64,000 bases of DNA, from positions 1 to 64,000 of the forward strand of contig JAIEMQ010000018.1 in NCBI GenBank assembly GCA_019752015.1, written 5' to 3'. Shown here in pieces: positions 27,291 to 43,682 of the stretch. The stretch's first letter is position 1. Each line of letters begins with the position of its first letter. The DNA comes from Cyanobacteriota bacterium. GTDB lineage: Bacteria; Acidobacteriota; Vicinamibacteria; Vicinamibacterales; UBA2999. Under the pieces are notes generated by a model, which searched no databases, was not told the origin of the DNA, and saw only the letters and a program-made list of their open reading frames with translations. The translations under genes were made by a program, and so were the position numbers.

Positions 27291-27300
27291 GTCTCGGCTC

Positions 27301-28583: not shown

Positions 28584-29413
28584 GTGAATCCGGTCCTGCT
28601 GGCCTTGACTCTCGCGCTGGGGAGCCAGACGCAGCCGACAACTATTCCTGAAATGTGGGGGGTGTGGTGCGCGCGGTGCCATGCCGCCGACGGCACCGGC
28701 CAGATCGACGAGCCGACGGTCACTGTCGTGCCGATGGACTTCACCGATTGCAAACTGACGACGGGCGAGCCCGATGCCTCACCGAGAAGGCGTTTCCGGA
28801 AAACGAATTCCTGATCCTGCCGGTGATCAGCCACGATCGCGAAGAGATTGAATTCACGGCGCTCTATGAACAGCGCCTCGGCAAGCGATCGATGTACGAA
28901 ATCGGGGTGCCGGTCACCAACAGCGGCGTGCACGAGGTCGAGATCGCGGTGAAGCACGCGCTCTTCAGCAGTAACACCAGCATTTTCTCGCTGGGCTTCG
29001 AAACGGCCCTGTCGCAGGTCACCACGATGTTCGAGCCGTTCATCAGCGCCGGCACGATGCTGCGCGACTGGTACGTGCAGACGCAGATCAAATACGGGAT
29101 TCCCGCGGATCGAACGAAAGCGGATCGCACCTTCGTCTACAACACCTACGTGGGACGCGATACCAGCCAGGCGCCGGACACCTGGACGATCGGCGTCGAG
29201 CTGAACGGCGAGAATCACGTGGTCGCCGTGACACCGCAAGTTCGCAAGGGACTAACCGGCACGGGCGCGCTCGCCGCGTCGATCGGCGCCACGGTGCCGA
29301 TTTACGGGCCGTGGCGGCAAACCGGGAAGTTTGATCGCCCGGAAAAAGAGGGAGTGAAATGGGTCGGCTACTTGCTGTGGGAATACTTGGAACCCTTGCG
29401 TGCGCGCAAATAG
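28584..29413 (+). pseudogene. Cytochrome c-like secreted protein, internal deletion and frameshift
   Basis: From a GTG at 28584 a signal peptide and a CARCH heme site (MWGVWCARCHAADGTGQ) are encoded. At about 28777-28780 the frame changes. EKAFPENEFLILPVISHDREE onwards continues in a second frame to the stop at 29413 and looks like a conserved beta-barrel-like outer-membrane or surface domain of about 205 residues. The rest of the cytochrome domain (distal Met region) is missing, so a deletion that also shifted the frame is the simplest reading. The last 55 nt overlap the next gene. Confidence 0.75.
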
Positions 29414-30021
29414 CTGCAGCACAGGGCTCGATCACCGGGACGGTCACCACCAGCGCGAAAGGCACCGCGCCGCTGCGCGTCACGATCGATCAGAAGGTCT
29501 GCGGCAACGAGTTGCCTGACGAGGCCATTGTCGTCGATGCACAGGGACGTCTTGCGAATGCGGTGGTGATCCTCACGGGCGTCAAGCGTGCGGCGGCGGC
29601 GGAAACCGTCGTGATGAACGAGAAGTGTAGATTTGGTCCGCGCGTGCAACTGGCGCGGCCGAATGCGAACGTGCGCACGACGAGCACGGACCCGGTCCTT
29701 CACACCGCGCAGGCACAGCTCGAAAGCGGCCGCACCATCTTCAACGTCGCGCTGCCGGTGCCCGGCATTCACATCACCAAGCCGATCGGCGCCGCGGGCA
29801 CGGTGCGATTGAACTGCAACACGCATCCGTGGATGCGCGGCTGGGTGATCGTGACGGATGAAGCGGCGGCGATCTCAGGCGCCGACGGTCGATTCACGAT
29901 TGACAACGTGCCACCAGGCACCTACGAGCTGCGCGTGTGGCACGAGTCGCTGAAAGGCGCACCCCAGAAGATCACGGTGACCGCCGGCAATGCAACTTCT
30001 GCCAACTTTCAGCTGAAATAG
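29359..30021 (+). CDS. Secreted cupredoxin-like/carboxypeptidase-regulatory protein
   Basis: 220 residues with a signal peptide (MGRLLAVGILGTLACAQIAAA). The domain order is a plastocyanin-like beta-sandwich ending in TVRLNCNTHPWMRGWVIV, where Cys, His and Met are spaced like a type-1 copper site, then a regulatory-like module (DGRFTIDNVPPGTYELRVWHES). Proteins of this kind accompany extracellular cytochromes in Acidobacteria, and copper or heme redox chemistry is plausible but unproven. It starts inside the upstream broken cytochrome gene (55-nt overlap), which suggests the two once worked together. Confidence 0.75.
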   Translation: MGRLLAVGILGTLACAQIAAAQGSITGTVTTSAKGTAPLRVTIDQKVCGNELPDEAIVVDAQGRLANAVVILTGVKRAAAAETVVMNEKCRFGPRVQLARPNANVRTTSTDPVLHTAQAQLESGRTIFNVALPVPGIHITKPIGAAGTVRLNCNTHPWMRGWVIVTDEAAAISGADGRFTIDNVPPGTYELRVWHESLKGAPQKITVTAGNATSANFQLK

Positions 30022-30330
30022 CACCGTCAACAGGTGCCACCGTCAACCACCGTCAACAGGTGCCAGGCACCCGGCACTACCGTCAACAGGTGCCAGGCAC
30101 CCGGCACCACCGTCAACAGGTGCCAGGCACCCGGCACCACCGTCAACAGGTGCCAGGCACCCGGCACCACCGTCAACAGGTGCCAGGCACCCGGCACCAC
30201 CGTCAACGGGTGCCAGGCACCCGGCACCACCGTTAACGGGTGCCAGCACCCGGCAACACCGTTAACGGGTGCCAGGCACGCGGCAATACCGTCAACGGGT
30301 GCCAGGCACCCGGCGCCACCCGTTAACGGA
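30022..30330. repeat. 30-bp tandem repeat array with GGTGCCAGGCACC palindrome
   Basis: About ten units of 29-31 bp with the pattern ACCGTCAACAGGTGCCAGGCA then CCCGGCACC. The first copies are partial and the last ones carry GTTAACGG instead of GTCAACAG. It fills the gap between two convergent genes, and the stop codon of the PQQ-like gene (30323-30325) lies in the final unit. Units are nearly identical throughout, with no unique spacers, so this is not CRISPR. Confidence 0.95.
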
Positions 30331-31576
30331 TTGCGCGGAGCGAAGAGGCGGTGCGCCAATACCAGGTGCCGTCGACGAGCGCGGGAGATGCGAGCGTCTG
30401 TTCGCCGAGCTCGTTCACATGCAGCAGCTTGAACGCTCTCCCCGCCTCGACGACGAACGTCTGCCCATCATCGTTGGTCAGGAAGATCTTGCCGTTGACG
30501 TGAACCGGCGACGCCGAGAAGCCTTCGCGCACGGCGGTCCCCAATCGATCCTGATACACGAGCTTCCCCGTTGCCGCTTCATACACGGTGAGGATGCTCT
30601 GCATGTCGTTGATCAGATACAGCAAATCGCCGACAACGATCCCTGAGGGAACGAACGGTGATCCTCTCGGCGAGCTCCACGCCACGTGCGTGCTGGTGAC
30701 GTCGCCGCTGCCGCCGGGCCGAATCGCGATCGTCGGACCGGCGCGCCCTGACGATGCGAACACGAGGCCGTGCGCGACGACCGGCGTCGGGATCACTTCA
30801 TAGGTATTGCCGCGAACCGTCCACAACTCCTTGCCGCTGTCCGGATCGTACGCCGCCACGCGATACTGACTGCTGACGATCAGCTCGTCGCGCTCGCCGG
30901 TGTTGATCACGATCGCGGTGCCCCAGCCGACCGATTCCCGCCGCGGCGTCTGCCAGATCGGCTTGCCGGTTGCCTTCTCGAACGCGCCGACGAACGCCGT
31001 CTGCCCCGGCGCCGGATTCGCATCCTGGAAGATGAAGATCCGATCCTTGTAGAGCACCGGCGATCCCGCGGGGCCGTGATAGTTGTCGATGATGCCGAAC
31101 TTGTGCTGCCACGCGATCTTGCCGTTGAAGTCGAACGCAAACAGACCGTGACGGCCGAACGACGCATACACCAGCTGACCGTCCGTCGCCGGCGTCGCCG
31201 ACGCGAAGCCGTTCTTGTAGTGCACGTACTCGACGCCGTTCTGCGGGATGAACGTCTCCCACAACTTCTTTCCGTCCGCGCGCGAATACGCGAGCATCGA
31301 CAACCGCTCGCCGTTGCCGTAGCCCGTGGTCAGGAAAATGCGATCGCCCCAGACGATCGGCGAGGAGTTGCCGCGGCCCGGCACGCTCACCTTCCAGACG
31401 CTCGCGGTTGGCGACCACTTGTCGGCGTATTGGCCGCCGGCGACGTGGCCCTGTCCCGACGGTCCGCGCCAGCGCGGCCAGTATTTCGCGCCTTCGCCCA
31501 CGACCTCGACCATGCGGACATCGGCGGGCGCGCTGAAAAACGCGGCCGCGAGGACTAGCACCAGCAGGCGTGACAT
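30323..31576 (-). CDS. Secreted PQQ-type beta-propeller protein
   Basis: 417 residues with a signal peptide (MSRLLVLVLAAAFFSAPA). Blades of the PQQ/quinoprotein ADH-like type repeat across the protein: ANPAPGQTAFVGAFEKATGKPIWQT, YDPDSGKELWTV, YEAATGKLVYQD, each with the A-x-D-x-x-TGK-x-W tryptophan-docking motif. Catalytic PQQ-dehydrogenase residues are not apparent, so a BamB-like scaffold or binding role is more likely than an enzyme. It shares a 33-bp divergent intergenic region with the TolB-like gene. Confidence 0.85.
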   Translation of the reverse strand: MSRLLVLVLAAAFFSAPADVRMVEVVGEGAKYWPRWRGPSGQGHVAGGQYADKWSPTASVWKVSVPGRGNSSPIVWGDRIFLTTGYGNGERLSMLAYSRADGKKLWETFIPQNGVEYVHYKNGFASATPATDGQLVYASFGRHGLFAFDFNGKIAWQHKFGIIDNYHGPAGSPVLYKDRIFIFQDANPAPGQTAFVGAFEKATGKPIWQTPRRESVGWGTAIVINTGERDELIVSSQYRVAAYDPDSGKELWTVRGNTYEVIPTPVVAHGLVFASSGRAGPTIAIRPGGSGDVTSTHVAWSSPRGSPFVPSGIVVGDLLYLINDMQSILTVYEAATGKLVYQDRLGTAVREGFSASPVHVNGKIFLTNDDGQTFVVEAGRAFKLLHVNELGEQTLASPALVDGTWYWRTASSLRAIR

Positions 31577-31582
31577 GGGGAT

Positions 31583-31588
31583 TAGAAT
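31583..31588 (+). promoter_or_regulatory. -10 box TAGAAT upstream of TolB-like gene
   Basis: TAGAAT lies in the 33-bp gap between divergent starts (31576 and 31610). It is 21 nt before the ATG, so this mRNA would have a short leader. Confidence 0.4.
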
Positions 31589-31609
31589 AGACGTTTCCTT
31601 CCTGCCGGG

Positions 31610-32791
31610 ATGAGGTTTCGGATGAAGCGCGTGACGAGTGTTCCTGCGGTGTTTGCTGTGATCCTGGTGGCCGTGGTGTCGGTGGCCGGACAGTCACAGC
31701 CGCAATCCGGGGCCCCCCCCACGCGGACTGTGCGTGGTGGGGTGGAATCACAGGAGCGGAACTTCCTCAATCGCATCCGGCGGCTGACCGTTGACGGCAA
31801 GCGCGCCGGCGAGGGCTACTGGTCGCCCGACGGCAAGCGCCTCGTCTTCCAGAGCGAGCGCGACGCCGCCAATCCGTTCTACCAAATCTACGTGCTCGAT
31901 CTCTCGACGGGCGACACCAGGCGCATTTCGCCCGGCATGGGCAAGACGACGTGCGCGTTCTTCCGGCCGAACAGCACCGAGATCGAATTCGCGTCCACCC
32001 ATCTCGATCCGAACTCGCTCAAGTATCAGAAGGACGAGCTCGACTTCCGCGCCTCGGGCAAGGAGCGCCGCTACGCGTGGGATTACGACGCGTCGATGGA
32101 CATCTTCACCTACGACGAAAAGACCGGCGCGATCAAACAGCTGACGACGGCGAAGGGATACGACGCCGAGGGCGGCTACTCGCCTGACGGCCAGTGGATC
32201 GCGTTCTCGTCGATGCGCGACGCCTACAACCGCACGCTGTCGGCCGCGGAACGGAAACAGCTCGAGCTCGATCCGTCGTACTTCGCCGAGGTCTACATCA
32301 TGAAGGCCGACGGCTCGGGACAGAAACGGTTGACGACCGAGAACGGCTACGACGGCGGCACGTTCTTCACCCGGGACGGCCGCATTGTGTGGCGTCACTT
32401 CGAAGAGAACGGTCTGATCGCCAACGTCTGGACGATGAAGCCGGATGGCACCGACAAGAAGCAGATCACCGACTTCGGATCGATGAGCTGGGCGCCCTAC
32501 GAGCATCCGTCGGGTGAGTACTTCCTGTTCGCATCCAACAAGCTCGGCTTCGAAAACTTCGAAGTGTTCATGGTGGACAAGGCTGGATTGAAGGAGCCGG
32601 TGCGCATCACCTACTCCGAAGGATTCGATGGATTACCGGTGCCGTCACCGGATGGCACGCAGCTGGCGTGGACATCGAGCCGCGCCGGCGGCACCGGCGC
32701 GGCCGGGCAGATTTACCTCGCGCAGTGGAATCACGAAGCGGCGATGGCCGCATTGAAAGCCGCGGGCCCGCGCGTAAAACATACGAAATAA
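31610..32791 (+). CDS. TolB-like PD40 beta-propeller protein
   Basis: 393 residues with a signal peptide (MRFRMKRVTSVPAVFAVILVAVVSVAGQ). At least five PD40 blades are visible: GYWSPDGKRLVFQSER, GGYSPDGQWIAFSSMRD, TFFTRDGRIVWRHF, APYEHPSGEYFLFASNK, VPSPDGTQLAWTSSR. Family members bind peptides or act as periplasmic scaffolds. It lies 22 bp before an M28-PDZ peptidase on the same strand. The two domains often occur together in Acidobacteria and Bacteroidetes, and the propeller may present substrate to the peptidase. Confidence 0.85.
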   Translation: MRFRMKRVTSVPAVFAVILVAVVSVAGQSQPQSGAPPTRTVRGGVESQERNFLNRIRRLTVDGKRAGEGYWSPDGKRLVFQSERDAANPFYQIYVLDLSTGDTRRISPGMGKTTCAFFRPNSTEIEFASTHLDPNSLKYQKDELDFRASGKERRYAWDYDASMDIFTYDEKTGAIKQLTTAKGYDAEGGYSPDGQWIAFSSMRDAYNRTLSAAERKQLELDPSYFAEVYIMKADGSGQKRLTTENGYDGGTFFTRDGRIVWRHFEENGLIANVWTMKPDGTDKKQITDFGSMSWAPYEHPSGEYFLFASNKLGFENFEVFMVDKAGLKEPVRITYSEGFDGLPVPSPDGTQLAWTSSRAGGTGAAGQIYLAQWNHEAAMAALKAAGPRVKHTK

Positions 32792-32813
32792 CAAATAACG
32801 AAGAACAAAAGAA

Positions 32814-34610
32814 ATGCGCAAAACATTTGCTCTCGCTCTCGCCGTCGCTCTCGTTGCCGTTCCGTCGTTCGCGCAGTCGCGAACGAAAACGCATGTGACG
32901 ACGCTCGCGTCGGACAAGTTCGAAGGACGCCTCACCGGATCGCCTGGCGAGAAGCTCGCCGCGGACTATTTGATCAGCGAGCTGAAACGCATCGGCGCGA
33001 AGCCGCTGCCGGGCATGACCGACTTCCGCATGCCGTTCACGTTCACGGCGGGATCGAAGGACGGCGGCTCGAAGCTGACCGTGCAGCACGGCACCACCGT
33101 CACCAACTTCGACGGTCCCGGCAACATTCTCGCGACGTCGTTCTCGGACAACGGCTCAACGAGCGGCACAATCGTCTTCGCCGGCTACGGCATTGTCGTT
33201 CCGGACTCGCAGGGCTTCGGCTACGACAGCTACCAGGGGCTCGACGTGAAGGACAAGATCGTGGTGGTCCTTCGCTATTTCCCTGAAGATGCCGATCAGA
33301 AAACGCGCGCGATCCTCGCGCGCTATGCGGACCTCCGCTACAAGGCGCAGGCGGCGCGCCAGCGCGGCGCCAGGGGACTGATCGTCGTGACCGGTCCGCG
33401 CTCTCCGAACGCGGGCGAGGTCGTGCCGATGAGTTTCGATACCGCGATCGCCGGCTCCGGCATTGTGGCCGCCAGCATTGCGGGCCGCGCCGCGGCGCCG
33501 ATCTTCGCAGCCGCGAAGAAGGAGCTCGAGGCCGTTCAGAAGGAGCTCGACAGCGGCAACCCGCACGTCGCCGGCTTCGCGATTCCCGAAGCCAGCGTCA
33601 CCATTACGACCAACGTGATTCGCGAACAACAGACGGGTCACAACGTGGTTGCTTATCTACCGGCGACCGGACGCGTCGTTGGCGTCGGCAAGCCGTGGAT
33701 CGGCGTCGGCGCGCATTACGATCATTTGGGCAAGGGCGGCGCGGGCAACTCTCTCGCTGATAAAGCCGATCTCAACAAGATCCATCACGGCGCCGACGAC
33801 AATGCGTCCGGCACCGCAACGGTGCTTGCGATCGGCGAGGCATTCAGCAAGCTCCAGCGTCGGCGCAATTTGTTGCTGGCGTTCTGGTCGGGTGAAGAGC
33901 TCGGCCTGCTCGGCTCCAACGCGTTCGTCACCAGGCCGCCGGTGCCGCTCGATGAATTTGCCGCCTACCTGAACTTCGACATGGTCGGCCGCGTCAACGA
34001 CAACAAGCTCACCGTGCAGGCCACCGGCACGAGCGCCATGTGGCCGAAGCTGCTCGAGCAGGCCAACGTCGCGGCCGGATTCGATCTGACGCTGCAGGAA
34101 GATCCGTATCAGCCGACCGACGTCGGCAGCTTCAACACGGCGAGCGTGCCGTGCCTCACCTTCTTCACCGGCGCGCACCAGGAGTACCACAAGCCGAGCG
34201 ACACGGCCGACAAGATCAACTACGAAGATCTCGATCGCGTCGTCGAATTCGCGACGGCGATCGTCAAGCGCCTGTCTGATTCGGTCGAAGCGCCGCAGTT
34301 CACCAAGGTCGAACAGAAGACCGACACCGGCGGCCGCGCCGGGCTGCGCCTCTTCACCGGCACGATCCCGGACTACGCATCCGACGTGAAGGGACTGTTG
34401 CTGGGCGGCGTGATCGGCGGCGGTCCTGCGGAGCAGGCGGGACTCGCGAAGGGCGATGTGATCATCGAGATCGCCGGACAGTCGATCACCAACATCTACG
34501 ACTACACCTACGCGCTCGAGCTCCTGAAGATCGGCCAGCCCGCGAGGGTCGTCTACATGCGCGGCAAGGAACGCCGCGAGACGATGCTCACTCCCGCTGC
34601 GCGCAAGTGA
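32814..34610 (+). CDS. Secreted M28 aminopeptidase with PA and PDZ domains
   Basis: 598 residues. Signal peptide (MRKTFALALAVALVAVPSFAQ), PA-like domain (about 85-270), M28 core with GAHYDHLGKG, HHGADDNASGTA, FWSGEELGLLGS, LNFDMVGR and EYHKPSDTADKI (all metal and catalytic residues present), and a C-terminal PDZ domain (about 505-590, GLLLGGVIGGGPAEQAGLAKGDVI). The PDZ domain may hold C-terminal tails of substrates or partners. It follows the TolB-like propeller and overlaps the Rieske gene start by 4 bp (GTGA). Confidence 0.93.
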   Translation: MRKTFALALAVALVAVPSFAQSRTKTHVTTLASDKFEGRLTGSPGEKLAADYLISELKRIGAKPLPGMTDFRMPFTFTAGSKDGGSKLTVQHGTTVTNFDGPGNILATSFSDNGSTSGTIVFAGYGIVVPDSQGFGYDSYQGLDVKDKIVVVLRYFPEDADQKTRAILARYADLRYKAQAARQRGARGLIVVTGPRSPNAGEVVPMSFDTAIAGSGIVAASIAGRAAAPIFAAAKKELEAVQKELDSGNPHVAGFAIPEASVTITTNVIREQQTGHNVVAYLPATGRVVGVGKPWIGVGAHYDHLGKGGAGNSLADKADLNKIHHGADDNASGTATVLAIGEAFSKLQRRRNLLLAFWSGEELGLLGSNAFVTRPPVPLDEFAAYLNFDMVGRVNDNKLTVQATGTSAMWPKLLEQANVAAGFDLTLQEDPYQPTDVGSFNTASVPCLTFFTGAHQEYHKPSDTADKINYEDLDRVVEFATAIVKRLSDSVEAPQFTKVEQKTDTGGRAGLRLFTGTIPDYASDVKGLLLGGVIGGGPAEQAGLAKGDVIIEIAGQSITNIYDYTYALELLKIGQPARVVYMRGKERRETMLTPAARK

Positions 34611-34921
34611 GAGAGTTTCGCGCCGTCGGGCGCATTGACGACTTCGTCTCGCGACAGGGCAGGATGGTGACCGTTGACGGCCGCCATGTTGCCCTGTTCC
34701 GTCTCGGGGACGATTTTTACGCCATCGACAATCTGTGCCTGCACAAGGCCGGTCCGTTATGCGAAGGCCAGATCGACGGCAACGATGTCGTGACGTGCCC
34801 GTGGCACGGCTGGTCGTACGAAATCAGGACCGGGACCCTCGTGCAGGATCCGCGCGTCGGCGTCTCCACGCATGACGTTCGCATTGAAGGTGACGCGATC
34901 TTCGTGCGGCTGTCGGATTGA
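34607..34921 (+). CDS. Rieske [2Fe-2S] ferredoxin-like protein
   Basis: 104 residues. The Rieske cluster site is complete: C-L-H-K-A-G (Cys, His) and C-P-W-H-G-W (Cys, His), spaced as in NirD/BphF-type ferredoxins. There is no signal peptide, so it is cytoplasmic and soluble. It probably donates electrons to an oxygenase or reductase, none of which is in the window. The GTG start overlaps the TGA of the M28-PDZ gene. It converges on the SBP/TonB fusion gene with only 3 bp between the stops. Confidence 0.9.
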   Translation: MREFRAVGRIDDFVSRQGRMVTVDGRHVALFRLGDDFYAIDNLCLHKAGPLCEGQIDGNDVVTCPWHGWSYEIRTGTLVQDPRVGVSTHDVRIEGDAIFVRLSD

Positions 34922-34924
34922 TCC

Positions 34925-37900
34925 TCAGAACGAATATCGCATTGTGAGATGGGCGTTGCGCCCGGGCTCTGGAAACCCTTCCCAGTAATAGTAGTCGGCG
35001 TCGAAGAGGTTCTTGACGCCGGCCTGGATGCGCAAGCCTTTTCGAATCGGCGCGCTGGCACCGGCATCGACGGTCGTCAAGCGCGCGCCCGGCAGCGGCA
35101 CACCGTTGTCGCTGATCGCGATGATTCCGCTCTGATGACGCAGCGTCACGATCGCGATCACCCTGCGTGGCAAGGCGATCGTGCCGCTGGCAACTCCCTT
35201 GTGTTTTGGTGTGCCCTGCGCGATGGCGCCAACCAGACCCGTGATGTTGCGATGCAGGTAACTGTAATTGGCATCGACGGTCAACCGTGGCACCACGCTC
35301 GATCGGATTGACACGCTGCCGCCGTACTGAATTTCGGCGCCGACGTTGACCGCCTGCTGGCACGTGCCGGCGCCGCCGCGGCCGCCGCCCGAACACAGCG
35401 GCGATAGAAAGAAGATGTTTTCGATCTCATCGGTCACGTGGCTGCGATACCAGTCGATTTGCGCGATCGTGCGCGACGCGATCGTTCTCGAGTATCCGGC
35501 CGTCCAGGTGCGCGCGCGCTCCGGCCGTAGGAACGGGTTGGGGAGGGCGCGGCCGGCGCGATACGAGTAACGGTCCTTGATGGTGGGAAAACGGCTCTTT
35601 CCCGCGCCGGTAACGAAGAACGTGCCCGCCGATCCCGGCGTAAACGTCAATGTTCCGACCGGATTGATCGCCCAAATCGGAGGGCCGATGGCAAATGGCG
35701 TCGTCGCTGTCCGATCGCTGGTCAGGTCGTCGGCACCGAGCGGATCGAGTCGATCGGCGCTGACTCCCAATGTGGCACGCAGCTGTGACGTCACGCCGAT
35801 GGCATCCTGCAGTCCAAACGACGATTGCCGATCTCGATCCGTTTGCCGAGGCGTCACCATCGCGTCATTGGCCCTTGAAAACGTGGTCGTCTGCTCCGCA
35901 TGAATGTCTTGCTTGACGAAGAACGATGCCGCAATGGCGTGCCGGCCGAAGCGGCGCGCCTCCAGCGCACCTGAGAGTCCGGATGACCGATCGTCATTGT
36001 CGAGAATGCCGGACGACGCCGCGAGGTTCATCGACGTAAACGTTACGTCGTCGAACATCTGCTGGCGGTTGCTGAATCTGCTGTAAAACGCCCGCAGACG
36101 CAACGCCCCCACACCGCCAAGCGCCGTGTGCGAGTTGAAATAATAGCTGGTCGTGTCCCACTGCGGCCACTTCCAGAAGCGCGGCGTGACGCACGGTACG
36201 CCGCTCGCCGTGGCGTTGCCCGCCGAACATGGACGAAACTGGCCGGCATAGGGCGGAATGCCGTTGACGCCCTGCTGATTCGACGAGCTGACGACGTAGA
36301 GATCGGACGCGCGCGGCGCCCACGCCATGCGCACGCGATAGCGCTGGTCACGCTGGGCTGAATTGACGCGGCGGCTGTCACGCTGGATGTCGGTCGGCGT
36401 GAAGGACGACGCGACTGAAAAGAAATCGCTCTGCAGTCGATCCGCGTGTGCAGTTGCGGAGAGCGAGCGCCATTTGCCGGCGACCATCAGGCCAGCATTG
36501 AGCTGGCGGCCGCTGGCGGTCCCGAGCAACAGGTCGCCCTCCAGCGCACTCTGCGGCTGGCGAGTGACCACATTCACCACGCCGCCCAGAAGGTTGGGCC
36601 CCAGCAGCGGCGACGCGTATCCCTTCGCGACTTGCACCTCGACAACGTCGCTGGTCAGGTAGCGCGCGAGATCGACGTAGCCGTCGAACGGCAGGTAGGC
36701 GGGGATGCCGTCGAAATAGAGCGGCACCTGCCGGCTGTCGAACCCACCCAGCGCAATGCCCGTCTGGTTGCGCGGCGATTTGTGATCGAGTGCGACGCCC
36801 GGAAGAAATTCGAGGGCGTCCTTGACGGTCAATGCCTGACGATTGCGGATCGCCGTGCCGTCGATCGAGTGCGTCATCGGTGCGAGCTCCGACGGGGGTG
36901 CGCCGACACTGACCTCGACGACGCCCAGATCGAAGCGCTCCATCTGATCGAGGACATAGTCGGCTGCCCGGACCTTCGTGAAGTCAGGCATGGTGGGGCG
37001 CGCCGGGTAGAGCCTGGAGTTTCGCTCGATCAATTCGGCCAACACGCGCGGGGTGATCGGCACAGCGGCACGATACAGTTCGACGATCGTCTCGAGGTGC
37101 CGCGCGCTGGGCTCGGCTATGCCGGCGCGGGTGAGCGCATCGGCAGCGGCTTTCGGACTGTCGCGAATCAGCTGCTGCGCCTTCGCAATCGCGCGCGTCA
37201 GCTTTCTGATCACGTCCGGATTCGCGGCCGCGTATTCGCGAGTTGCGCCTAGTGTGTGAATCTGACCGCCGCGAAGCGCCGCGACTTCGCCCCCTGACTG
37301 GTTTACGAGCATCATGGCTCCGAGGCGCACCAGCGCATCCTCGAGAAACGGCGAATGGGTGTAGAGCGCATCAACAGAGCCGCTGGTCAGGGCTTCGATC
37401 TGATCTTCCGCCCGGCGGATGACGATCTGCACGTCCTGATCGGCGTTCATGCCGGCTTCGGCAAAGAGGATTCGGAGCCGCCGCGGCGGCTCCGGCGCGA
37501 CGCCGATTTTCAGGCCCTTGATCGCCTTGAGCCGATCGGCCAGAGGCGCGCGCGGATCGAGCTTGAGCTTCGCCGCGACATCGCCGCGCACGATCAGGTT
37601 GATCGGATCGTTGGCGAGCAGGCTGGCGAACAACACGAACGGATGCTGCTCCGCGATCAAACCCAGATACACCGGCGGCTGCAACAGCGACACATCGACG
37701 CGGCGCTGCATCAAGATCATGCCGCTCATGTTCGCGGCATCCGGCACGACGACCTCGATGTCGAGTCCTTCGCCGGCGAAGAGACCGGCTCCCTGGGCGA
37801 CCCAGAACGAGATGTACTGGAGGTTGCCCCGCTCCGGAATGCCGATTCTGACCGTCTCGGCGGAGGCGCCGGCAGCCGCGAGAACGACCGCGCAGGCCAC

Positions 37901-37927
37901 GGCCACGCCGGTTCGCACTATGGGCAT
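34925..37927 (-). CDS. Fusion: periplasmic substrate-binding protein + TonB-dependent receptor
   Basis: 1000 residues in one uninterrupted frame. Signal peptide (about 1-23). Residues about 24-335 form an NMT1/THI5-like (SsuA/taurine type) ABC substrate-binding domain: RIGIPERGNLQYISFWVAQG, AANMSGMILMQRRVDVSLLQ, LKGLKIGVAPEP. Residues about 350-470 are a TonB receptor plug: AIRNRQALTVKDALEFLPGV, GGFDSRQVPLYFDGIPAY, LLGPNLLGGVVNVVTRQP. The remainder is a barrel ending in the canonical aromatic terminus RNAHLTMRYSF. Binding proteins normally sit free in the periplasm. Here one replaces the usual regulatory-like or STN domain, tethered to the plug. No ABC permease or ATPase lies in the window. 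The ligand is unknown; the family binds sulfonates, nitrate or thiamine-pyrimidine precursors. Confidence 0.88.
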   Translation of the reverse strand: MPIVRTGVAVACAVVLAAAGASAETVRIGIPERGNLQYISFWVAQGAGLFAGEGLDIEVVVPDAANMSGMILMQRRVDVSLLQPPVYLGLIAEQHPFVLFASLLANDPINLIVRGDVAAKLKLDPRAPLADRLKAIKGLKIGVAPEPPRRLRILFAEAGMNADQDVQIVIRRAEDQIEALTSGSVDALYTHSPFLEDALVRLGAMMLVNQSGGEVAALRGGQIHTLGATREYAAANPDVIRKLTRAIAKAQQLIRDSPKAAADALTRAGIAEPSARHLETIVELYRAAVPITPRVLAELIERNSRLYPARPTMPDFTKVRAADYVLDQMERFDLGVVEVSVGAPPSELAPMTHSIDGTAIRNRQALTVKDALEFLPGVALDHKSPRNQTGIALGGFDSRQVPLYFDGIPAYLPFDGYVDLARYLTSDVVEVQVAKGYASPLLGPNLLGGVVNVVTRQPQSALEGDLLLGTASGRQLNAGLMVAGKWRSLSATAHADRLQSDFFSVASSFTPTDIQRDSRRVNSAQRDQRYRVRMAWAPRASDLYVVSSSNQQGVNGIPPYAGQFRPCSAGNATASGVPCVTPRFWKWPQWDTTSYYFNSHTALGGVGALRLRAFYSRFSNRQQMFDDVTFTSMNLAASSGILDNDDRSSGLSGALEARRFGRHAIAASFFVKQDIHAEQTTTFSRANDAMVTPRQTDRDRQSSFGLQDAIGVTSQLRATLGVSADRLDPLGADDLTSDRTATTPFAIGPPIWAINPVGTLTFTPGSAGTFFVTGAGKSRFPTIKDRYSYRAGRALPNPFLRPERARTWTAGYSRTIASRTIAQIDWYRSHVTDEIENIFFLSPLCSGGGRGGAGTCQQAVNVGAEIQYGGSVSIRSSVVPRLTVDANYSYLHRNITGLVGAIAQGTPKHKGVASGTIALPRRVIAIVTLRHQSGIIAISDNGVPLPGARLTTVDAGASAPIRKGLRIQAGVKNLFDADYYYWEGFPEPGRNAHLTMRYSF

Positions 37928-38050
37928 CCGGCGAGGCTACCATTTGCTACTGTCCAATTCAAAACGAGTCGAACAGGTGAGTCGATTCAAGACGATTCGG
38001 CAGCCTCGTCTGCGAGACGTGCTATTGTCGGGTTTTCCAGGAGGACAGGC

Positions 38051-38410
38051 ATGTTGCGAATTTGTTCGGCGGTGCTCGCCCTTGGTCTGCTCGTGTCCGG
38101 AAGTGCTTACGCGCAGGCCGGCGTCGCCGGCGCGTGGGACCTCGCGATTAACGGACCCGAGGGTCCGATCAATGCGACCGCCACGTTGAAGCAGGACGGC
38201 GAGAACGTCACGGGATCGATCGACACGCCCCAGGGCAAGGCGGAAATGAAGGGCACCTATAAAGGCAAGACCCTCAACCTGGCGTTCTCGATCCAGGGTC
38301 CGCAGGGGCCGATCGACATCAAGGTCAACGGCGAAGTCGACGGCGCCTCGATGAAAGGCGTCATCGACTTCGGCATGGGCATGGCGGACTTCACGGCTAA
38401 AAAGAAGTAA
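38051..38410 (+). CDS. Small secreted beta-rich protein, function unknown
   Basis: 119 residues. Signal peptide (MLRICSAVLALGLLVSGSAYA), then an all-beta domain with alternating short strands: GAWDLAINGPEGPINATATL, VTGSIDTPQGKAEMKGTYKG, TLNLAFSIQGPQGPIDIKVN. The pattern is lipocalin/THAP4-like in appearance, but I cannot assign a family. GGAGG just upstream fixes the ATG. It ends at an AT-rich terminator shared with the convergent gene. Confidence 0.7.
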   Translation: MLRICSAVLALGLLVSGSAYAQAGVAGAWDLAINGPEGPINATATLKQDGENVTGSIDTPQGKAEMKGTYKGKTLNLAFSIQGPQGPIDIKVNGEVDGASMKGVIDFGMGMADFTAKKK

Positions 38411-38475
38411 TTAAAAGTGCAAAGTCAAAAATTAAAAACGCTTTTACGTTTTAATTTTTAATTTTTAACTTCTTT
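38401..38475. terminator. AT-rich bidirectional terminator/cruciform
   Basis: An AT-rich inverted repeat in a GC-rich context. Outer arms AAAGAAGT (38401-38408) and ACTTCTTT (38468-38475), inner arms AAAAATTAAAAACG (38427-38440) and CGTTTTAATTTTTA (38447-38460), loop CTTTTA. The oligo-A and oligo-T stretches give U-runs on both strands, as expected for two convergent genes. Confidence 0.7.
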
Positions 38476-39504
38476 AAACCCCGTGGGGATCGCGACGGAC
38501 GCCGCATCGACGTCCGTCGTGAGCTTCAGCATCTCGATGGACGTCGACATCACGATGGTGCGCTGCGGCTTCGCGTTGCTGTTCTGATTCTTCTCCGCCT
38601 GCTCAGCCATTTTCTTCAAGCCGCCGAGCATTCCGCCAAGGCCTTTCTTCTTCGGCTCTTCGGGTGCGGGGAGCGCATCAGCGGCTTGATTCGCCGTGCC
38701 GGGCGGCACTGACTCCATTCGCATCTCGGTGAGGATCGCGGTTCCGGGCGGCATCTTGCTGCCTTCTTTGGCCATGCGATCGAGGGCGGGCTTCATCTGC
38801 GGATACATCGCCATCGCCATCGCCATGTCCTGCGCGGAGGCGCCGGTGACGGTCAGGCCGTAAACCTTTTCGGCGTACTTGCGATCGAAGTCGGCGAGGT
38901 CCTTGGTTGACGGCGCGCCCGGCGTCATCCACATGTCGGTCGTCATCACCAGGCCGCCGGCGTCGTTGAGCGTCTTGCCCTTTTCGCGGACGGTGATCGT
39001 CATCACGCCCTTGGTGGTGTTGAAGCCGTTGATGGTCCTGGTCTCGCCGGTGTTCTTAATGTCGAAGTCGACGTCGAGTTCCTTCTCATTGGGATCTTTT
39101 TGGGCCGGCGTTTCGGCTCCGCCCCCGCCGGCCGTCTCGCGCTGCATTTCTTTGGCGTTCTTCTCCGCCTCGCGCTGCGCTTCCTGCATCTGGCGGCGAA
39201 GCTCGGCGAACGTGGTGACCTTGTAGGTCTTCTTCTTGAGGTCGAGGTCGTAGATCTTCTCTTCCGACAGGTCGATGATCTGGCCGCTGGTATCGCCGTT
39301 CATCGTCGCCTTGCGGTTGCCTTTCACCGCCACGGTCGACACGACACCCTCGCGGGCGCCCTTGCTGAACATGTTGACCATCTTGCCGAGCATGCCGCCC
39401 AGCTGGAACTTCACGCGCTGATCGCTGCGCACATCGGCGGACAACCCGGACGTCACACCAACCAGACCGACACACAACGCAAGCAGAAAGGGCGAACGGC
39501 GCAT
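38458..39504 (-). CDS. Secreted hypothetical protein with Gly/Met-rich segments
   Basis: 348 residues with a signal peptide (MRRSPFLLALCVGLVGVTSGLSA). A beta-rich domain (KATMNGDTSGQIIDLSEEKIYDLDLKKKTYKVTTFAEL) that looks like a DUF4412-type outer-membrane-lipoprotein fold is followed by a charged helix, a second domain (about 135-260) and a Gly/Lys-rich helix (PEEPKKKGLGGMLGGLKKMAEQ). The function is unknown. A TATAGAAT box lies upstream, and GGAGG precedes the start codon, so this gene has a normal leader. Confidence 0.6.
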   Translation of the reverse strand: MRRSPFLLALCVGLVGVTSGLSADVRSDQRVKFQLGGMLGKMVNMFSKGAREGVVSTVAVKGNRKATMNGDTSGQIIDLSEEKIYDLDLKKKTYKVTTFAELRRQMQEAQREAEKNAKEMQRETAGGGGAETPAQKDPNEKELDVDFDIKNTGETRTINGFNTTKGVMTITVREKGKTLNDAGGLVMTTDMWMTPGAPSTKDLADFDRKYAEKVYGLTVTGASAQDMAMAMAMYPQMKPALDRMAKEGSKMPPGTAILTEMRMESVPPGTANQAADALPAPEEPKKKGLGGMLGGLKKMAEQAEKNQNSNAKPQRTIVMSTSIEMLKLTTDVDAASVAIPTGFKEVKN

Positions 39505-39543
39505 TGGGGGACACCTCCGGGATGGATTCTATAACGATAGCGG

Positions 39544-42036
39544 CTAGTACTGGCTCAACAGTCGCGCGGACTTCAGTATGTCTGATTCACTGACAAGGAA
39601 GAACTCTTCAAGTGGCGGAGAGTATGGCACCGGCGCATCGAGCGCGCCGAGAATCCGGATTGGCGCATCGAGCGATTCGAACGCTTCTTCCTGGATGATC
39701 GCGGCAAGGCTCTCGCCAATGCCGCCGGTGCGTGAATCCTCGTGCACGATCAGCACGCGATTGCAGTGACGCGTCACGGCGAGGATTGCATCCTTGTCGA
39801 GCGGTGAGAGCGTGCGCAAATCGAGCACCGCGGCTTCAATGCCCTCGGCCGACAACTGCCCGGCGACGCGCATGCAGTGATGCACGTAGGCGCCGTACGA
39901 AATCATCGCGAGGTCGCTACCCGTTCTCCTCAACGCTGCCTTACCAATCGGCGTTGGCGCCGGCGCATCGACAGGCAGTGCCTGCTTCACACGCGGATCG
40001 CGATAGAGCGCGATGTGTTCGTAGAACAGCACCGGATCAGGATCGGCAACCGCGGCGGCCATCAGTCCGCGCGCATCTTCGGGCGTGGACGGCACGACAA
40101 TCTTCAAGCCGGGTGTGCGATAGAACCAGGGCTCGGTGTTCTGGCTGTGGTAGGGACCCGCGTGACGCAGCCCGCCCCACGGCATGCGCACCACCATCGG
40201 CACTTCCCCGCCCCAGCGATAACGAATCTTCGCGGCGTTGTTGACGAGCTGATTGAATCCCGTCGCGACGAAATCGTTGAATTGCATCTCGCCGATCGGA
40301 CGTAAGCCCGCGAGCGCGGCGCCGACACACACACCGAGCACGGCGCTTTCGGCGAGCGGCGAATTGCGAATGCGATCGCCGTAGTCCTTGAGCAGCGGCC
40401 GCAGCAGGAGAAAGGCGTTGCCGTACTGGCCGCCAACGTCCTCGCCGTAAACGAAGACGCGCGGATCGTTTTTCAAGGCGTCGCCGACGCCGAGCATTAC
40501 CGCTTCGAGGAACGTGTTGCCCTTCTTGTCGAACGCCAATCCGGTGTCGAGCGGCGGCAGATCGGCGGAGACCGGCTGGGCGAGACGGCGCGCGGGTTCG
40601 AGCACTTCGACGCGGGTGCGCGGCGTGTCGTCCTTGAAGACGCCGACCCCGGCCTGCTCCGGTTTCGGCCACGGTTCGGTGATGACGAGCTGCGCGGCGC
40701 GGTCGACGAGCTCGTCGGCCCACTTCTTCAGCGCATCGAGATGCGTGGCATCGATCACGCCGTCGTCTTCGAGGCGGCGGGCGTACATCGGAATCGGATC
40801 GCGCTTCGCCCAGTAGTCATAGAGCTCGCGATTCGCATAGCCGGTGTCGTGCAGCTGGTGATAGTCCCACGATGGCGGCTGGTCCTTGCCGAGATACAGC
40901 ATGTCGTCGTGATGCGCGTGGCCGCACATGCGCATCGCGATGATCTCGATCAGCGTCGGGCCGTCGCCGGCGCGGGCGCGCTCGGCGGCCCACGTGAACG
41001 CCGCGGCGACCTCGTCGGGGTCGGTGCCGTCGATCGTCAGGCCTGGAATGCCGTAACCGGCGGCTTTGTCGGCAAAGACGCGTGCGGCGGAGTTGTCGCG
41101 TACCGGCGTCGAGAGCGCGGTCTGGTTGTTCTGCAGGCAGAAGATCGCCGGCAGCTTCGCGGCGGCGCAGGCGTTGATCGCCTCGTGCCATTCGCCGAGC
41201 GACGAGCCGCCTTCGCCGATGAACGACAGCGCGATGCGCTCGCTCTTCTGGATCGCAAACGCCATCGCCATGCCGGCCATCGACAGCGATCCGACGGCGA
41301 GCGGCGCGGCCGCGGGCAGCACGCCCCACGCGAAATCGCCGGTGTGGAGATCCTTGCCCGACATCGGCGGCCCGGCCTTGCCCATCTGCGCGCGCAGGAT
41401 CATCGCGACGGCTTCCTCGTCGTGGCGCATCGCCAGCACCATGCCGAGATCGCGAATCACCGGCGCCAGCACGTCGCCGTTCCACGAGCCGTCCGCGTTC
41501 TTGTAATTGGCGCCGCGCTTCAAGCGGATCGCGCCGGCGTAGATCGCTTCCTGTCCGAGCGAGCGGAAACCCTTGCCCTGGAACGCCATGTCGCCCCAGC
41601 GCACTTCACCGCCCATGAAGAACTGCTTCAGGCGGTTGTCGACGCTGCGCGTCAGGCACATGCCTCTGAGAATTTCCTTGCGCTCGTCTTTGGTCAGCGA
41701 CGCTTCGATCGCGGCCCGGCGCAGGAAGCCGTCGCACGCGTCCACGACCTCAGCGCGCGCCTGCTCGAGACGTTTCAGCGCGGAGGTGCCGGGCGTAGTG
41801 TCGGTAATCCCCTCCGGCGCGACGATCGATTCGTACAGCGCCTTGGCGAGCGCGCGGCGCATCACCGCGCGCGCCGCATCGAGCTTCACCGCATCCTTGC
41901 CCTTGATCGCCGGCAGGCCGGCCTTCTCGAACGCCTCCAGCGCGAACGTCAGCGCGAAAGGATGACGCTCGGCCACGAAGGCCGCGAAGCGGCTTCCGAG
42001 TCCGGACAACTTAACGAGATCGTTCGTGCGCGGCAT
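39544..42036 (-). CDS. Fused alpha-beta thiamine-dependent 2-oxoacid dehydrogenase E1
   Basis: 830 residues. The N-terminal half carries the alpha-subunit TPP motif GEGGSSLGEWHEAINACAAAK (about 268-288) ending in FCLQNN. The C-terminal half is the beta subunit with the transketolase-type pyrimidine-binding domain (KGNTFLEAVMLGVGDALKND...RVFVYGEDVGGQYGN) and the transketolase C-terminal domain (VLIVHEDSRTGGIGESLAA). It fits branched-chain (2-oxoisovalerate) or pyruvate E1, decarboxylating the 2-oxoacid and passing the acyl group to an E2. E2 and E3 are not in the window. The single-chain form is a known variant. It is monocistronic here. Confidence 0.9.
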   Translation of the reverse strand: MPRTNDLVKLSGLGSRFAAFVAERHPFALTFALEAFEKAGLPAIKGKDAVKLDAARAVMRRALAKALYESIVAPEGITDTTPGTSALKRLEQARAEVVDACDGFLRRAAIEASLTKDERKEILRGMCLTRSVDNRLKQFFMGGEVRWGDMAFQGKGFRSLGQEAIYAGAIRLKRGANYKNADGSWNGDVLAPVIRDLGMVLAMRHDEEAVAMILRAQMGKAGPPMSGKDLHTGDFAWGVLPAAAPLAVGSLSMAGMAMAFAIQKSERIALSFIGEGGSSLGEWHEAINACAAAKLPAIFCLQNNQTALSTPVRDNSAARVFADKAAGYGIPGLTIDGTDPDEVAAAFTWAAERARAGDGPTLIEIIAMRMCGHAHHDDMLYLGKDQPPSWDYHQLHDTGYANRELYDYWAKRDPIPMYARRLEDDGVIDATHLDALKKWADELVDRAAQLVITEPWPKPEQAGVGVFKDDTPRTRVEVLEPARRLAQPVSADLPPLDTGLAFDKKGNTFLEAVMLGVGDALKNDPRVFVYGEDVGGQYGNAFLLLRPLLKDYGDRIRNSPLAESAVLGVCVGAALAGLRPIGEMQFNDFVATGFNQLVNNAAKIRYRWGGEVPMVVRMPWGGLRHAGPYHSQNTEPWFYRTPGLKIVVPSTPEDARGLMAAAVADPDPVLFYEHIALYRDPRVKQALPVDAPAPTPIGKAALRRTGSDLAMISYGAYVHHCMRVAGQLSAEGIEAAVLDLRTLSPLDKDAILAVTRHCNRVLIVHEDSRTGGIGESLAAIIQEEAFESLDAPIRILGALDAPVPYSPPLEEFFLVSESDILKSARLLSQY

Positions 42037-42149
42037 TCTCCTGATTATAGGTTGGCGACCGGCAAGCCCTGCCGTTGCCTACGTCACGACCACGCAAATT
42101 CCGGCCACGGCCGCGGTGACGTGACCCGGAATTCAGCATCTAAAACGAT

Positions 42150-43217
42150 GTGAGGTTTGTCCACATGCTGATCGCCCTCACGTTGCTGAGCGCATGCACA
42201 GCGGCATCAATGGCGATCGCCCGTCCCGAAACGGCTCCTGACCCGACTATTCCCGCCACCTGCGCCGCGCGTGATGACGCCGCTGAAATCGAATGGCGCG
42301 TGAGTGACCAGGCAGACGCGCGCGAATTGTCGCGCTGGTGCCGCGCGGTCGGTCAGCTGGTGTTCGTCGAGGCGCCGGCGGCGGTATCTGCCGAGGCTCC
42401 TGCTCTCGACCAGCTCGTCGTGCTGTCGTGGAACGCGCACCTGGCTGACGGTGAGCTCCGCAATCTGATCGCGAAACTGCGTGCCGGCGAATTGACCAAC
42501 GGCCGCCCGGTCGCGCATTTCGTGCTGCTCGTGCAGGAGCTGTATCGCCGCGGCGGTGCGGTGCCGGAGTTCGACGCGCGCGATCGATCGGCGTTTGCGA
42601 TCCTGCCGCGAGATCCTGATTCATTCGACGTCGACGATCACGCTGCGTCGCTCGGCTTGTCGATTCTTTACGTCCCGTCGATGCGCAACGGCCCGGAGCT
42701 GCGTGAGGATCGCGGCAACGCGATCATCTCGACCGAGCCGCTGCTGGATCCGTTCGCGCTCGAGTTGCCGCTCGCGCGGCAGCGGCGCGTTGCGCTTGGC
42801 GCCGCCGTGATGGTCAGGACGGCAGAAGGCCCGAAGCGTCTCGAAGTCCTCGACGCGCACCTCGAGCCGCTCAGCTCTCCCAAAACCTTGTGGGTGTTCA
42901 AGAACCCGCGCGCCGGACAGGTCCGCGCGATTCTGGATGTCCTCGACACGCCTCGCTATGAAAGTGACGCGATTGCCGGCGTCGTGCTCGGCGGCGACTT
43001 CAACACCGTCCGCGCCGGCGCGCGCGAAGATGCGTATCGGCTCGCCCGCGCGTGGTCGACGAGCCTGCACCGCGAAGACCGCCGCGACACGCACATGATG
43101 GGCCGGCTCGACTACCTCTTCTTCAAGCTGAATTCGGGTTGGAAAGGGTCCACCTATCGGCTCGAAGAGCGGTTCGGGTCCGACCACCACCCGGTGATCG
43201 GCACCTTTTCACGCTGA
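42150..43217 (+). CDS. Endonuclease/exonuclease/phosphatase-family lipoprotein
   Basis: 355 residues starting with GTG, or ATG at 42165. The leader ends in LTLLSACTAAS with a lipobox Cys, so it is a periplasmic or outer-membrane lipoprotein. The EEP-fold residues are visible: LSWNAHL (Asn), VQELYRRG (Glu), LDAHLEP (Asp, His), GGDFNTVR (Asp, Asn), and FGSDHHPVIG (Asp, His). Family members are DNases, inositol phosphatases or sphingomyelinases, and the secreted location favours a DNase or phosphodiesterase role. Confidence 0.85.
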   Translation: MRFVHMLIALTLLSACTAASMAIARPETAPDPTIPATCAARDDAAEIEWRVSDQADARELSRWCRAVGQLVFVEAPAAVSAEAPALDQLVVLSWNAHLADGELRNLIAKLRAGELTNGRPVAHFVLLVQELYRRGGAVPEFDARDRSAFAILPRDPDSFDVDDHAASLGLSILYVPSMRNGPELREDRGNAIISTEPLLDPFALELPLARQRRVALGAAVMVRTAEGPKRLEVLDAHLEPLSSPKTLWVFKNPRAGQVRAILDVLDTPRYESDAIAGVVLGGDFNTVRAGAREDAYRLARAWSTSLHREDRRDTHMMGRLDYLFFKLNSGWKGSTYRLEERFGSDHHPVIGTFSR

Positions 43218-43244
43218 GGGCGGTAGCCTGTTACGATAGACACG

Positions 43245-43586
43245 TTGCGATTCCGATCGAAGCCGCTTGTCGCACTGTCGATCGTCCTGGTCCTGGCGAG
43301 CGCGCTGGGCAGCTGGCACGCGCCCGACGATCAGGATGAGTACGCCGCCCCGGCGATCCATCATCATGCCGATCACGACGCGCGCTTCACGGACGCCACT
43401 CAGCCCGCCGCCCCGGAGCATTGCGCGTTTTGTCACTGGCTTCGCGCCTTCGGCAACGGCGCTCCGGCCGCGACGCACGTGTTCGCGGCGCAGTCAGTTC
43501 CGCTCGTTCGCGTCGCCGGCGTCGCCGGTCGCGTCAGCAAGTCTGTCCGGCTCGCACTTCCGTCTCGCGCACCGCCGCTCGTCTGA
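43245..43586 (+). CDS. DUF2946-like His/Cys-rich small secreted protein
   Basis: 113 residues from a TTG directly after a TACGAT box (7 nt). A signal segment (about 5-25) is followed by IHHHADHDARF and EHCAFCHWLRAF, a His cluster and a C-x2-C-H metal-binding motif like those of DUF2946 proteins, which often accompany copper or zinc genes. It lies just upstream of a ZnuD-like TonB receptor, so a periplasmic metal-binding role is likely. The C-terminal 40 residues look less conserved. Confidence 0.55.
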   Translation: MRFRSKPLVALSIVLVLASALGSWHAPDDQDEYAAPAIHHHADHDARFTDATQPAAPEHCAFCHWLRAFGNGAPAATHVFAAQSVPLVRVAGVAGRVSKSVRLALPSRAPPLV

Positions 43587-43682
43587 TTACCTCCCGGTTC
43601 TCATTTCATTGAAATAACGCCGCCGGTGTAGCCGGCGCGATCGCACGTGCTGAATATGGCGCGCGGGTATTGGGAGATCAGC
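43587..43682. other. Short intergenic region with REP-like hairpin
   Basis: 96 bp between the DUF2946-like gene and the receptor. It holds a small hairpin CGCCGG/CCGGCG at 43621-43637 of the type also seen in REP elements, then a GGGAG Shine-Dalgarno before the ATG at 43683. Confidence 0.5.

What the first reader, a model, noticed from the sequence alone, without database searches (positions are those of the whole stretch)
34925..37927. Substrate-binding protein fused to a TonB-dependent receptor
One open frame of 1000 residues joins an ABC-type NMT1/THI5-like binding domain (about 24-335) to a full TonB plug and barrel (about 350-1000). The binding domain would hang from the plug on the periplasmic side, so a ligand entering the barrel could be captured at once. 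This is a physical outer-membrane-to-periplasm handoff. The usual N-terminal modules of such receptors are STN or carboxypeptidase-regulatory domains. I know of no described transporter built like this, so it is the best candidate here for a new system. Sequence shows the fusion; the handoff model is inference.
Basis: partly seen in the sequence, partly recalled or inferred. Interest (0 to 1): 0.88.

Follow-up and report, generated by a model that had tools for sequence, protein, structure and literature searches.

The report
Binding protein fused to membrane receptor
One bacterial gene joins a periplasmic nutrient-catching protein end to end with an outer-membrane uptake receptor, a join that looks real but was seen in only one genome, and whose work as a hand-over device is plausible but unproven.

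Summary
One intact 1000-residue frame carries a signal peptide, an NMT1/THI5-type substrate-binding domain (24 to about 325), a TonB-box-like segment (332-345), a TonB plug and a barrel ending in Phe. The two homologies meet within about seven residues: a complete secreted binding protein is spliced onto the mature start of a receptor. The one close relative of the binding half (59%) is a stand-alone gene in one genome of the same family. The receptor half belongs to a subfamily whose relatives often sit beside molybdate genes (modABC, modE, modD).

The fusion is a single-gene insertion into a conserved block; 0 of 7 examined same-genus relatives have it. It was found in 1 of 193 class genomes and 0 of 398 Pseudomonadota.

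The hand-off model is only partly supported. No ABC permease or ATPase lies beside the gene, and the one related permease found in the genome has its own binding protein. The receptor half lost 9 of 49 columns invariant in 21 relatives, including the plug RG arginine. Structure prediction failed, so cleft orientation is untested. Capture is my best guess; a sensor/gate role is the main rival. Ten literature searches showed no such fusion.

The parts
34925..37927 (-). fused gene, 1000 codons plus stop (P0001)
   Evidence: codon-position G+C
37859..37927 (-). residues 1-23, Sec-type signal peptide ending ASA|E (by eye)
   Evidence: sequence; homology to the G120 binding protein begins inside it (residue 9)
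36953..37858 (-). residues 24-325, NMT1/THI5-type substrate-binding domain
   Evidence: Pfam NMT1_2 and NMT1 over cut-off; 59-60% identity to stand-alone L021:318-1379; profile match to PDB 3qsl
36935..36952 (-). residues 326-331 (LDQMER), what lies between the two pairwise homologies
36893..36934 (-). residues 332-345, FDLGVVEVSVGAPP: mature N-terminus and TonB-box-like segment of the receptor
   Evidence: aligned with FSLGVVEVIGIPP of G940, FTLGEIVVTAP of Methylophilus and others
36578..36874 (-). residues 352-450, TonB-dependent receptor plug
   Evidence: Pfam PF07715 6.7e-15
34928..36562 (-). residues 456-1000, beta-barrel ending in Phe
   Evidence: Pfam PF00593 1.4e-22 over 583-974; ends MRYSF
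34607..34921 (+). flank: Rieske [2Fe-2S] gene, convergent with the fusion; start approximate
   Evidence: Pfam PF00355 5.8e-18; full-length-like match in 5 of 7 same-genus stretches, shortened in 1, none in 1
38051..38410 (+). flank: small secreted-looking protein, no Pfam match
   Evidence: match in 7 of 7 same-genus stretches; no family

Best explanation
A real in-frame gene fusion. SHOWN: a complete NMT1/THI5-type substrate-binding protein, with its own signal peptide, is spliced almost without linker onto the mature N-terminus of a TonB-dependent receptor of a subfamily often found beside molybdate (Mo/W) genes. The gene sits alone in a genus-conserved block where the relatives examined lack it. 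INFERRED: it is exported as one chain (calculated 105.8 kDa after signal removal). The barrel sits in the outer membrane and the binding domain hangs at the periplasmic mouth of the plug. TonB engages the TonB-box right after the binding domain, and ligand let through is caught at once by the binding domain, concentrating it at the periplasmic face. Release to an inner-membrane carrier would then be by diffusion, or to a permease encoded elsewhere, because none is linked. Ligand unknown: the receptor half points to a Mo/W-type oxyanion or chelate, the binding half to a nitrate/sulfonate/pyrimidine-type small anion or heterocycle.
For: Domain hits over curated cut-offs. Homology borders near 325-328 and 331/332. 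TonB-box-like segment shared with most relatives. The binding half aligns to a stand-alone secreted-type protein including its signal peptide. 40 of 49 family-invariant receptor residues kept, including the plug GG/N and C-terminal residues. M28 and E1 flanks present and the fusion absent in 7 of 7 examined same-genus stretches. The binding-protein family belongs to ABC import cassettes elsewhere: ATPase, permease and NMT1-type SBP in L077 and L128. Some receptor relatives sit beside separate binding-protein genes of other families: Peripla_BP_2 in L025, L042, L044; SBP_bac_6 in L007, L046; ModA in L041. So receptor plus binding protein is a recurring neighbour pair.
Against: No linked permease or ATPase. 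The one related permease found in the genome (a single query, E 0.001) is fused to an ATPase next to its own NMT1-type SBP. The fusion is a singleton, so evolution gives no test of function. The receptor half has the longest branch of 22 (1.66 against 0.11-0.80) and lost 9 of 49 invariant residues, among them plug R394, which CirA and BtuB also have. None of the 7 class genomes with a receptor relative has an NMT1_2 gene on the same contig; only G118 and G129 have one at all. A tblastn of the SBP half on the receptor neighbourhoods found one weak hit (E 0.004). G120, which has the stand-alone SBP, shows only weak plug-level receptor matches (1.5e-10 and 6.5e-4). Not all relatives show Mo genes or a binding protein nearby. 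Structure models failed.
Confidence: 0.48

Rival explanations
1. Sensor or gate, not relay: the binding domain senses periplasmic ligand and, being fused with no linker to the TonB-box, controls whether TonB can engage (substrate feedback), as SBP-like domains are thought to do in the NrtC/CmpC transport ATPases, or as STN domains signal in other receptors.
For: The binding domain's profile matches the SBP-like domains of NrtC and CmpC chains in the PDB; [quoted passage not shown] STN modules have an established role in signalling and NTE modules precede the TonB-box (PMC7782687, passages). No linked permease. Only a few residues between domain and TonB-box-like segment. Loss of conserved charged residues in both plug and barrel would fit a changed gate.
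Against: No STN match. Anti-sigma/sigma genes nearby were not searched for beyond reading the frame list. The SBP's best PDB match is an exported binding-protein-like chain (3qsl), ahead of NrtC/CmpC; regulatory fusions of this family are known to me only on ATPases.
Confidence: 0.26
2. The receptor half is losing or has lost transport; the protein is now mainly an outer-membrane-anchored periplasmic binding protein.
For: Longest branch of 22. 9 of 49 invariant positions lost, against at most 5 of 45 in any other row (for the other rows the invariant set includes the fusion itself, which shrinks it), including E388Q, R394G, E543L, E707Q. The barrel is 23-33% identical to relatives, the plug 34-50%. 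The receptor half has the least typical codon usage of the genes compared.
Against: The frame is intact over 1000 codons with coding composition. 40 of 49 invariant positions, the TonB-box-like segment and the terminal Phe are kept. A drifting frame on so long a branch would be expected to gain stops (inference).
Confidence: 0.13
3. A precursor cut after export into a free binding protein and a normal receptor, so that the fusion only ensures equal amounts.
For: The junction lies at the natural C-terminus of one protein and the natural mature N-terminus of the other.
Against: No second signal-peptide-like cleavage region in 326-345 (by eye); no protease partner suggested or searched for.
Confidence: 0.07
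4. Assembly or sequencing artefact that joined two genes.
For: Singleton; the searches hold one genome per species, so no second isolate could be checked.
Against: It lies inside a 114.7-kb contig of a genome rated 100% complete with 0.87% contamination, with both flanks in genus order. The splice falls in frame at two natural domain ends. Neither half occurs again in the genome as a close copy.
Confidence: 0.05

Closest known systems
TonB-dependent receptors with N-terminal STN or carboxypeptidase-regulatory (NTE) domains
   Same: An extra periplasmic domain before the TonB-box, plug and barrel (PMC7782687, passages).
   Different: Here the extra domain is a roughly 300-residue substrate-binding protein, not a roughly 9-kDa STN/NTE; neither family matches.
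Mo/W-associated TonB-dependent receptor subfamily (my label; relatives beside modABC, modE, modD, DUF2478, AFOR)
   Same: Receptor half is homologous over its whole length, 27-37% identity.
   Different: Relatives seen have only a signal peptide or a roughly 110-residue leader without SBP homology; their neighbouring binding proteins are separate genes of other families; no Mo gene lies beside the fusion.
NMT1/THI5-type (SsuA/NitT/TauT-like) ABC binding proteins
   Same: Pfam NMT1_2 and NMT1; 59% to a stand-alone member.
   Different: In L077 and L128 a separate protein in an ATPase-permease-SBP cassette; here covalently joined to a receptor with no cassette.
NrtC/CmpC ATPases with an SBP-like regulatory domain
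   Same: An SBP domain of the same superfamily fused to another transport component (PMC11349869, passages).
   Different: Fused to a cytoplasmic ATPase at its C-terminus, not to an outer-membrane receptor at its N-terminus.
CirA and BtuB (solved structures)
   Same: Best sequence-profile matches of the receptor subfamily in the PDB.
   Different: No fused domain; the plug RG arginine is present there and absent in the fusion.

Membership tests
TonB-dependent receptor | plug and barrel domains | tested here: met
   PF07715 and PF00593 over cut-off
TonB-dependent receptor | TonB-box before the plug | tested here: met
   FDLGVVEVSVG aligned with relatives' mature N-termini; box recognised by alignment and recalled consensus, binding to TonB not tested
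TonB-dependent receptor | export signal and C-terminal Phe | tested here: met
   by eye: signal 1-23, ends MRYSF
TonB-dependent receptor | conserved plug RG arginine | tested here: not met
   position 394 is Gly; Arg in 21 of 21 relatives and in CirA and BtuB. A single residue, so not taken as excluding membership by homology
TonB-dependent receptor | TonB-driven uptake | not testable with these tools
   needs an experiment
NMT1/THI5-type substrate-binding protein | domain homology over nearly its full length | tested here: met
   PF13379 profile positions 17-247 of 252
NMT1/THI5-type substrate-binding protein | linked ABC permease and ATPase | tested here: not met
   none beside the ORF; the one related permease found is on contig C7 with its own SBP
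NMT1/THI5-type substrate-binding protein | ligand binding in the cleft | not testable with these tools
   models failed, mean pLDDT 35.5 and 27.8
STN-type signalling receptor | STN domain before the TonB-box | tested here: not met
   no STN match at E 0.001
Mo/W-associated receptor subfamily | sequence homology of the receptor half | tested here: met
   E 2e-99 to 2e-60 in 9 of 398 Pseudomonadota, 6e-98 to 7e-62 in 7 of 193 class genomes
Mo/W-associated receptor subfamily | molybdate genes beside the receptor | tested here: not met
   none recognised in 28000-46000 (by eye; six proteins); a modA homologue lies elsewhere in the genome
SBP-receptor fusion family | a second protein with the same order | tested here: not met
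   1 of 193 class genomes (own only), 1 of 396 phylum genomes (own), 0 of 398 Pseudomonadota; of 23 plasmid records 0 cover 80% of the query, the 20 listed start at residue 306 or later, 3 were not listed. First looks score only a few candidates per genome

The most novel reading that the evidence does not exclude
A one-chain outer-membrane-to-periplasm capture gate: the first TonB-dependent receptor whose periplasmic module is a true substrate-binding protein. Its ligand-driven closure, coupled without linker to the TonB-box, replaces the plug's own gating (the plug RG arginine and conserved acidic residues were lost), so that import is rectified at the outer membrane without a dedicated ABC partner.
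Probability: 0.17. Interest if true: 0.82.

Novelty: new variant of a known kind. Interest (0 to 1): 0.55.

Why it matters
How a ligand let in by a TonB-dependent receptor reaches its periplasmic binding protein is, to my knowledge, still open; a protein in which evolution has tied the two together makes it directly testable by structure and by cutting the tie. It also gives gene-fusion evidence that receptor and binding protein work as a pair. The side finding that this receptor subfamily recurs beside modABC, modE and modD suggests a class of outer-membrane Mo/W (chelate) receptors that could be tested in culturable Pseudomonadota. The weight is reduced by the fusion being a singleton with a divergent receptor half.

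Tried and rejected
Other long frames: apart from the window's own, seven NMT1_2 genes of the class lie in open frames of 770-930 aa. I fetched and read all seven. They look like GC-rich read-through upstream of the gene, one runs into a stretch of N, one has an OmpA-like tail (by eye); tblastn of the receptor half finds nothing on them at 1e-4. G072's match, reported as 216-1000 in a 1076-aa open frame, looked like a second fusion; its N-terminal part is read-through plus a leader, and the SBP half finds no hit there.

MauG link: the stand-alone SBP of G120 is divergent from a MauG-like gene cut by the contig end, and some receptor relatives sit beside MauG (L026, L027, L028). But the G120 fragment is closer to MauG genes that are not beside these receptors, so I gave the link little weight. 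Structure: single-sequence and three-row AlphaFold2 models were useless, so no fold search was run. Mobile element: no convincing terminal repeats round the insertion. Promoter-like sites: 0 found, 0.7 expected from shuffles. Rfam: no hit in 27000-45000.

Literature: ten searches. I saw listings only; three returned nothing and two showed part of what matched (15 of 35, 20 of 107). No listing names an SBP-receptor fusion. Passages were read in PMC5343134, PMC9542535, PMC11349869 and PMC7782687; the first two gave nothing on a fusion. Subscription papers and UniProt/InterPro architectures were not searchable, so absence from print is not claimed beyond these searches.
Full report
WHAT IS THERE. 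The frame at 34925-37927 is real and is on the minus strand. It encodes 1000 residues: a signal peptide (1-23, by eye), an NMT1/THI5-type substrate-binding domain (Pfam NMT1_2 37-264, NMT1 36-261), a TonB plug (352-450) and a TonB-dependent barrel (583-974), each over its curated cut-off; it ends in Phe, and the chain without the signal weighs 105.8 kDa. Codon position 3 has the highest G+C in 16 of 17 blocks, the junction block included. Codon usage of both halves, the receptor half most, is less typical than that of nine neighbouring genes taken together, but nearer to them than the antisense frame.

WHERE THE SEAM LIES. The closest relative of the binding half is a stand-alone 353-aa protein in one genome of the same family (G120; 59-60% identity). 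Its alignment runs from inside the signal peptide (residue 9) to residue 325 (to 328). The receptor half aligns pairwise with ordinary receptors from residue 331/332, where FDLGVVEVSVGAPP faces FSLGVVEVIGIPP (G940) and FTLGEIVVTAP (Methylophilus), close after those receptors' signal peptides. In the genome searches some alignments run further back, to 302 at most among normal relatives, and to 216 in one read-through case. Thus a whole binding protein replaces the receptor's leader with hardly any linker, directly before the TonB-box-like segment.

HOW WIDESPREAD. In 193 genomes of the class, 9 matched the fused protein at 1e-30: its own genome, 7 with the receptor half only and 1 (G120) with the binding half only. 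The binding half alone at 1e-15 was found in 1 of 396 phylum genomes, its own; G120, which would pass that threshold, was evidently not among those drawn. In 398 Pseudomonadota, 9 had the receptor half at 1e-30 and none both. In plasmids 23 records matched; none covers 80% of the query and the 20 listed start at residue 306 or later. NMT1_2 occurs in 66 of 193 class genomes; apart from the window's copy, the seven in open frames of 770 aa or more were read and are not receptors. A three-row profile of the binding family found 1 of 398 Pseudomonadota at 1e-25. These searches score only a handful of candidates per genome and one genome per species, so rare relatives may be missed. The one scan of genome contigs found a single relative, the Methylophilus receptor.

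LOCUS HISTORY. All 9 genomes of the genus, its own included, have the neighbouring E1-type dehydrogenase. I took 7 of the other 8 (the eighth match starts at base 137 of its contig). All 7 have the M28-peptidase gene in the same stretch, and none has either half of the fusion at 1e-4. In 5 of 7 the Rieske gene and the small secreted-looking gene are next to each other (20-72 nt between tblastn ends; in one the small gene is inverted), one has only a 19-residue Rieske match, and one (G110) has no Rieske match and carries another insert of about 6 kb (carbon-nitrogen hydrolase, FG-GAP/ASPIC, cytochrome c554-TPR). The DUF gene at 38458-39504 was matched in 5 of 7. In the window the Rieske and small genes are separated by 3.1 kb holding only the fusion. 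It is a lineage-specific single-gene insertion. No mobile-element ends were recognised.

WHAT THE TWO HALVES USUALLY DO. Binding half: relatives sit in ATPase-permease-SBP cassettes (L077 in G118, 28-29% identity; L128 in G559). Profile matches in the PDB are 3qsl (putative exported protein), yeast THI5/THI13, a formyl-pyrimidine binding protein and the SBP-like domains of NrtC/CmpC. Receptor half: neighbours of relatives include modA, modB and a modC-like ATPase (L041, the best-scoring relative; modA and modB over their NCBIfam cut-offs, modC below its own), ModE with two Mop/TOBE domains (L044), ModD (L019), DUF2478 with Peripla_BP_2 genes (L042, L044) and FecCD/ATPase genes (L042), a molybdopterin-binding small protein with MauG (L026, L027, L028), an aldehyde-ferredoxin-oxidoreductase gene (L025), and in other branches SBP_bac_6 plus a di-haem oxidoreductase (L007, L046; L017 annotated likewise). 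NRPS genes follow one (L023). I infer a Mo/W-linked receptor subfamily. This is context, not proof: these loci were looked at one by one, without a control for chance, and several show no Mo gene (for example Paracoccus L016, Methylophilus L007). The window's own locus has none; a modA homologue lies elsewhere in its genome.

STATE OF THE RECEPTOR HALF. In a 22-row tree it groups with three receptors of the same class (support 90/94) on a branch of 1.66; other tips are 0.11-0.80; its place is therefore unsure. Of 49 columns invariant in the 21 other rows it keeps 40 and loses 9 (E388Q, R394G, L505V, E543L, K555N, L622Q, S642L, Y644N, E707Q); the next worst row loses 5 of 45. R394 is the arginine of the plug RG motif, present in CirA and BtuB too. 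From memory, this arginine and barrel glutamates form a plug-barrel lock in solved receptors; whether E543 and E707 are those glutamates was not shown. The pattern fits either a changed gate or decay.

HOW IT MOST LIKELY WORKS. Shown: one frame, one signal peptide (by eye), domain order, hardly any linker, no linked ABC partner. Inferred: export as one chain, barrel in the outer membrane, binding domain at the periplasmic mouth, TonB engaging between binding domain and plug, capture of the incoming ligand. The weakest step is what happens next: no permease is linked, and the one related permease found in the genome (an ATPase-permease fusion on contig C7) lies beside its own NMT1-type SBP, so a direct relay to an ABC importer is unsupported. 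A sensor/gate role is the main rival, with a precedent for SBP-like domains fused to transport ATPases (PMC11349869, passages). In the class, the receptor relatives and NMT1_2 genes are not on the same contigs, so gene neighbourhood does not support this particular pairing. Both structure models failed (mean pLDDT 35.5 and 27.8), so geometry is untested.

KNOWN OR NEW. Receptors with STN or NTE modules are known (PMC7782687, passages). Ten full-text searches of open-licence papers showed no receptor with a substrate-binding-protein module in their listings. I call it a new variant of a known kind: a TonB-dependent receptor with a new kind of periplasmic module, seen once.

Noticed in passing
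L041:6841-11652; L044:7993-12583; L019:3416-9842; L025:9857-14250: A TonB-dependent receptor subfamily recurs beside modAB(C), ModE, ModD, DUF2478 with Peripla_BP_2 genes, or an AFOR gene: candidate outer-membrane Mo/W (chelate) receptors.
   Followed up: partly
L026:6891-10680; L027:7869-11754; L028:9713-13517: Triad in three genomes of the class: receptor, small molybdopterin-binding-domain protein, MauG-like di-haem peroxidase.
   Followed up: partly
L007:7911-12542; L046:6137-11012; L017:5033-9866: Receptor next to an SBP_bac_6-type or annotated extracellular binding protein and a di-haem oxidoreductase (DHOR) in Pseudomonadota.
   Followed up: partly
window 30046-30320 and 58824-58935: Tandem 30-nt repeats (9.2 and 3.7 copies) that share the palindrome GGTGCCAGGCACC at two distant places.
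   Followed up: no
window 11130-11513: 21/63-nt tandem repeat array, unit like TCGACGGAGTCGACACGCGAC.
   Followed up: no
window 43647-45854 (+): An ordinary TonB-dependent receptor with a carboxypeptidase-regulatory domain, matched in 4 of 7 same-genus stretches.
   Followed up: partly
L066:3956-10140 (G110): In another same-genus genome the same site holds a different insert of about 6 kb (carbon-nitrogen hydrolase, FG-GAP/ASPIC protein, cytochrome c554-TPR protein), so the site may be insertion-prone.
   Followed up: partly
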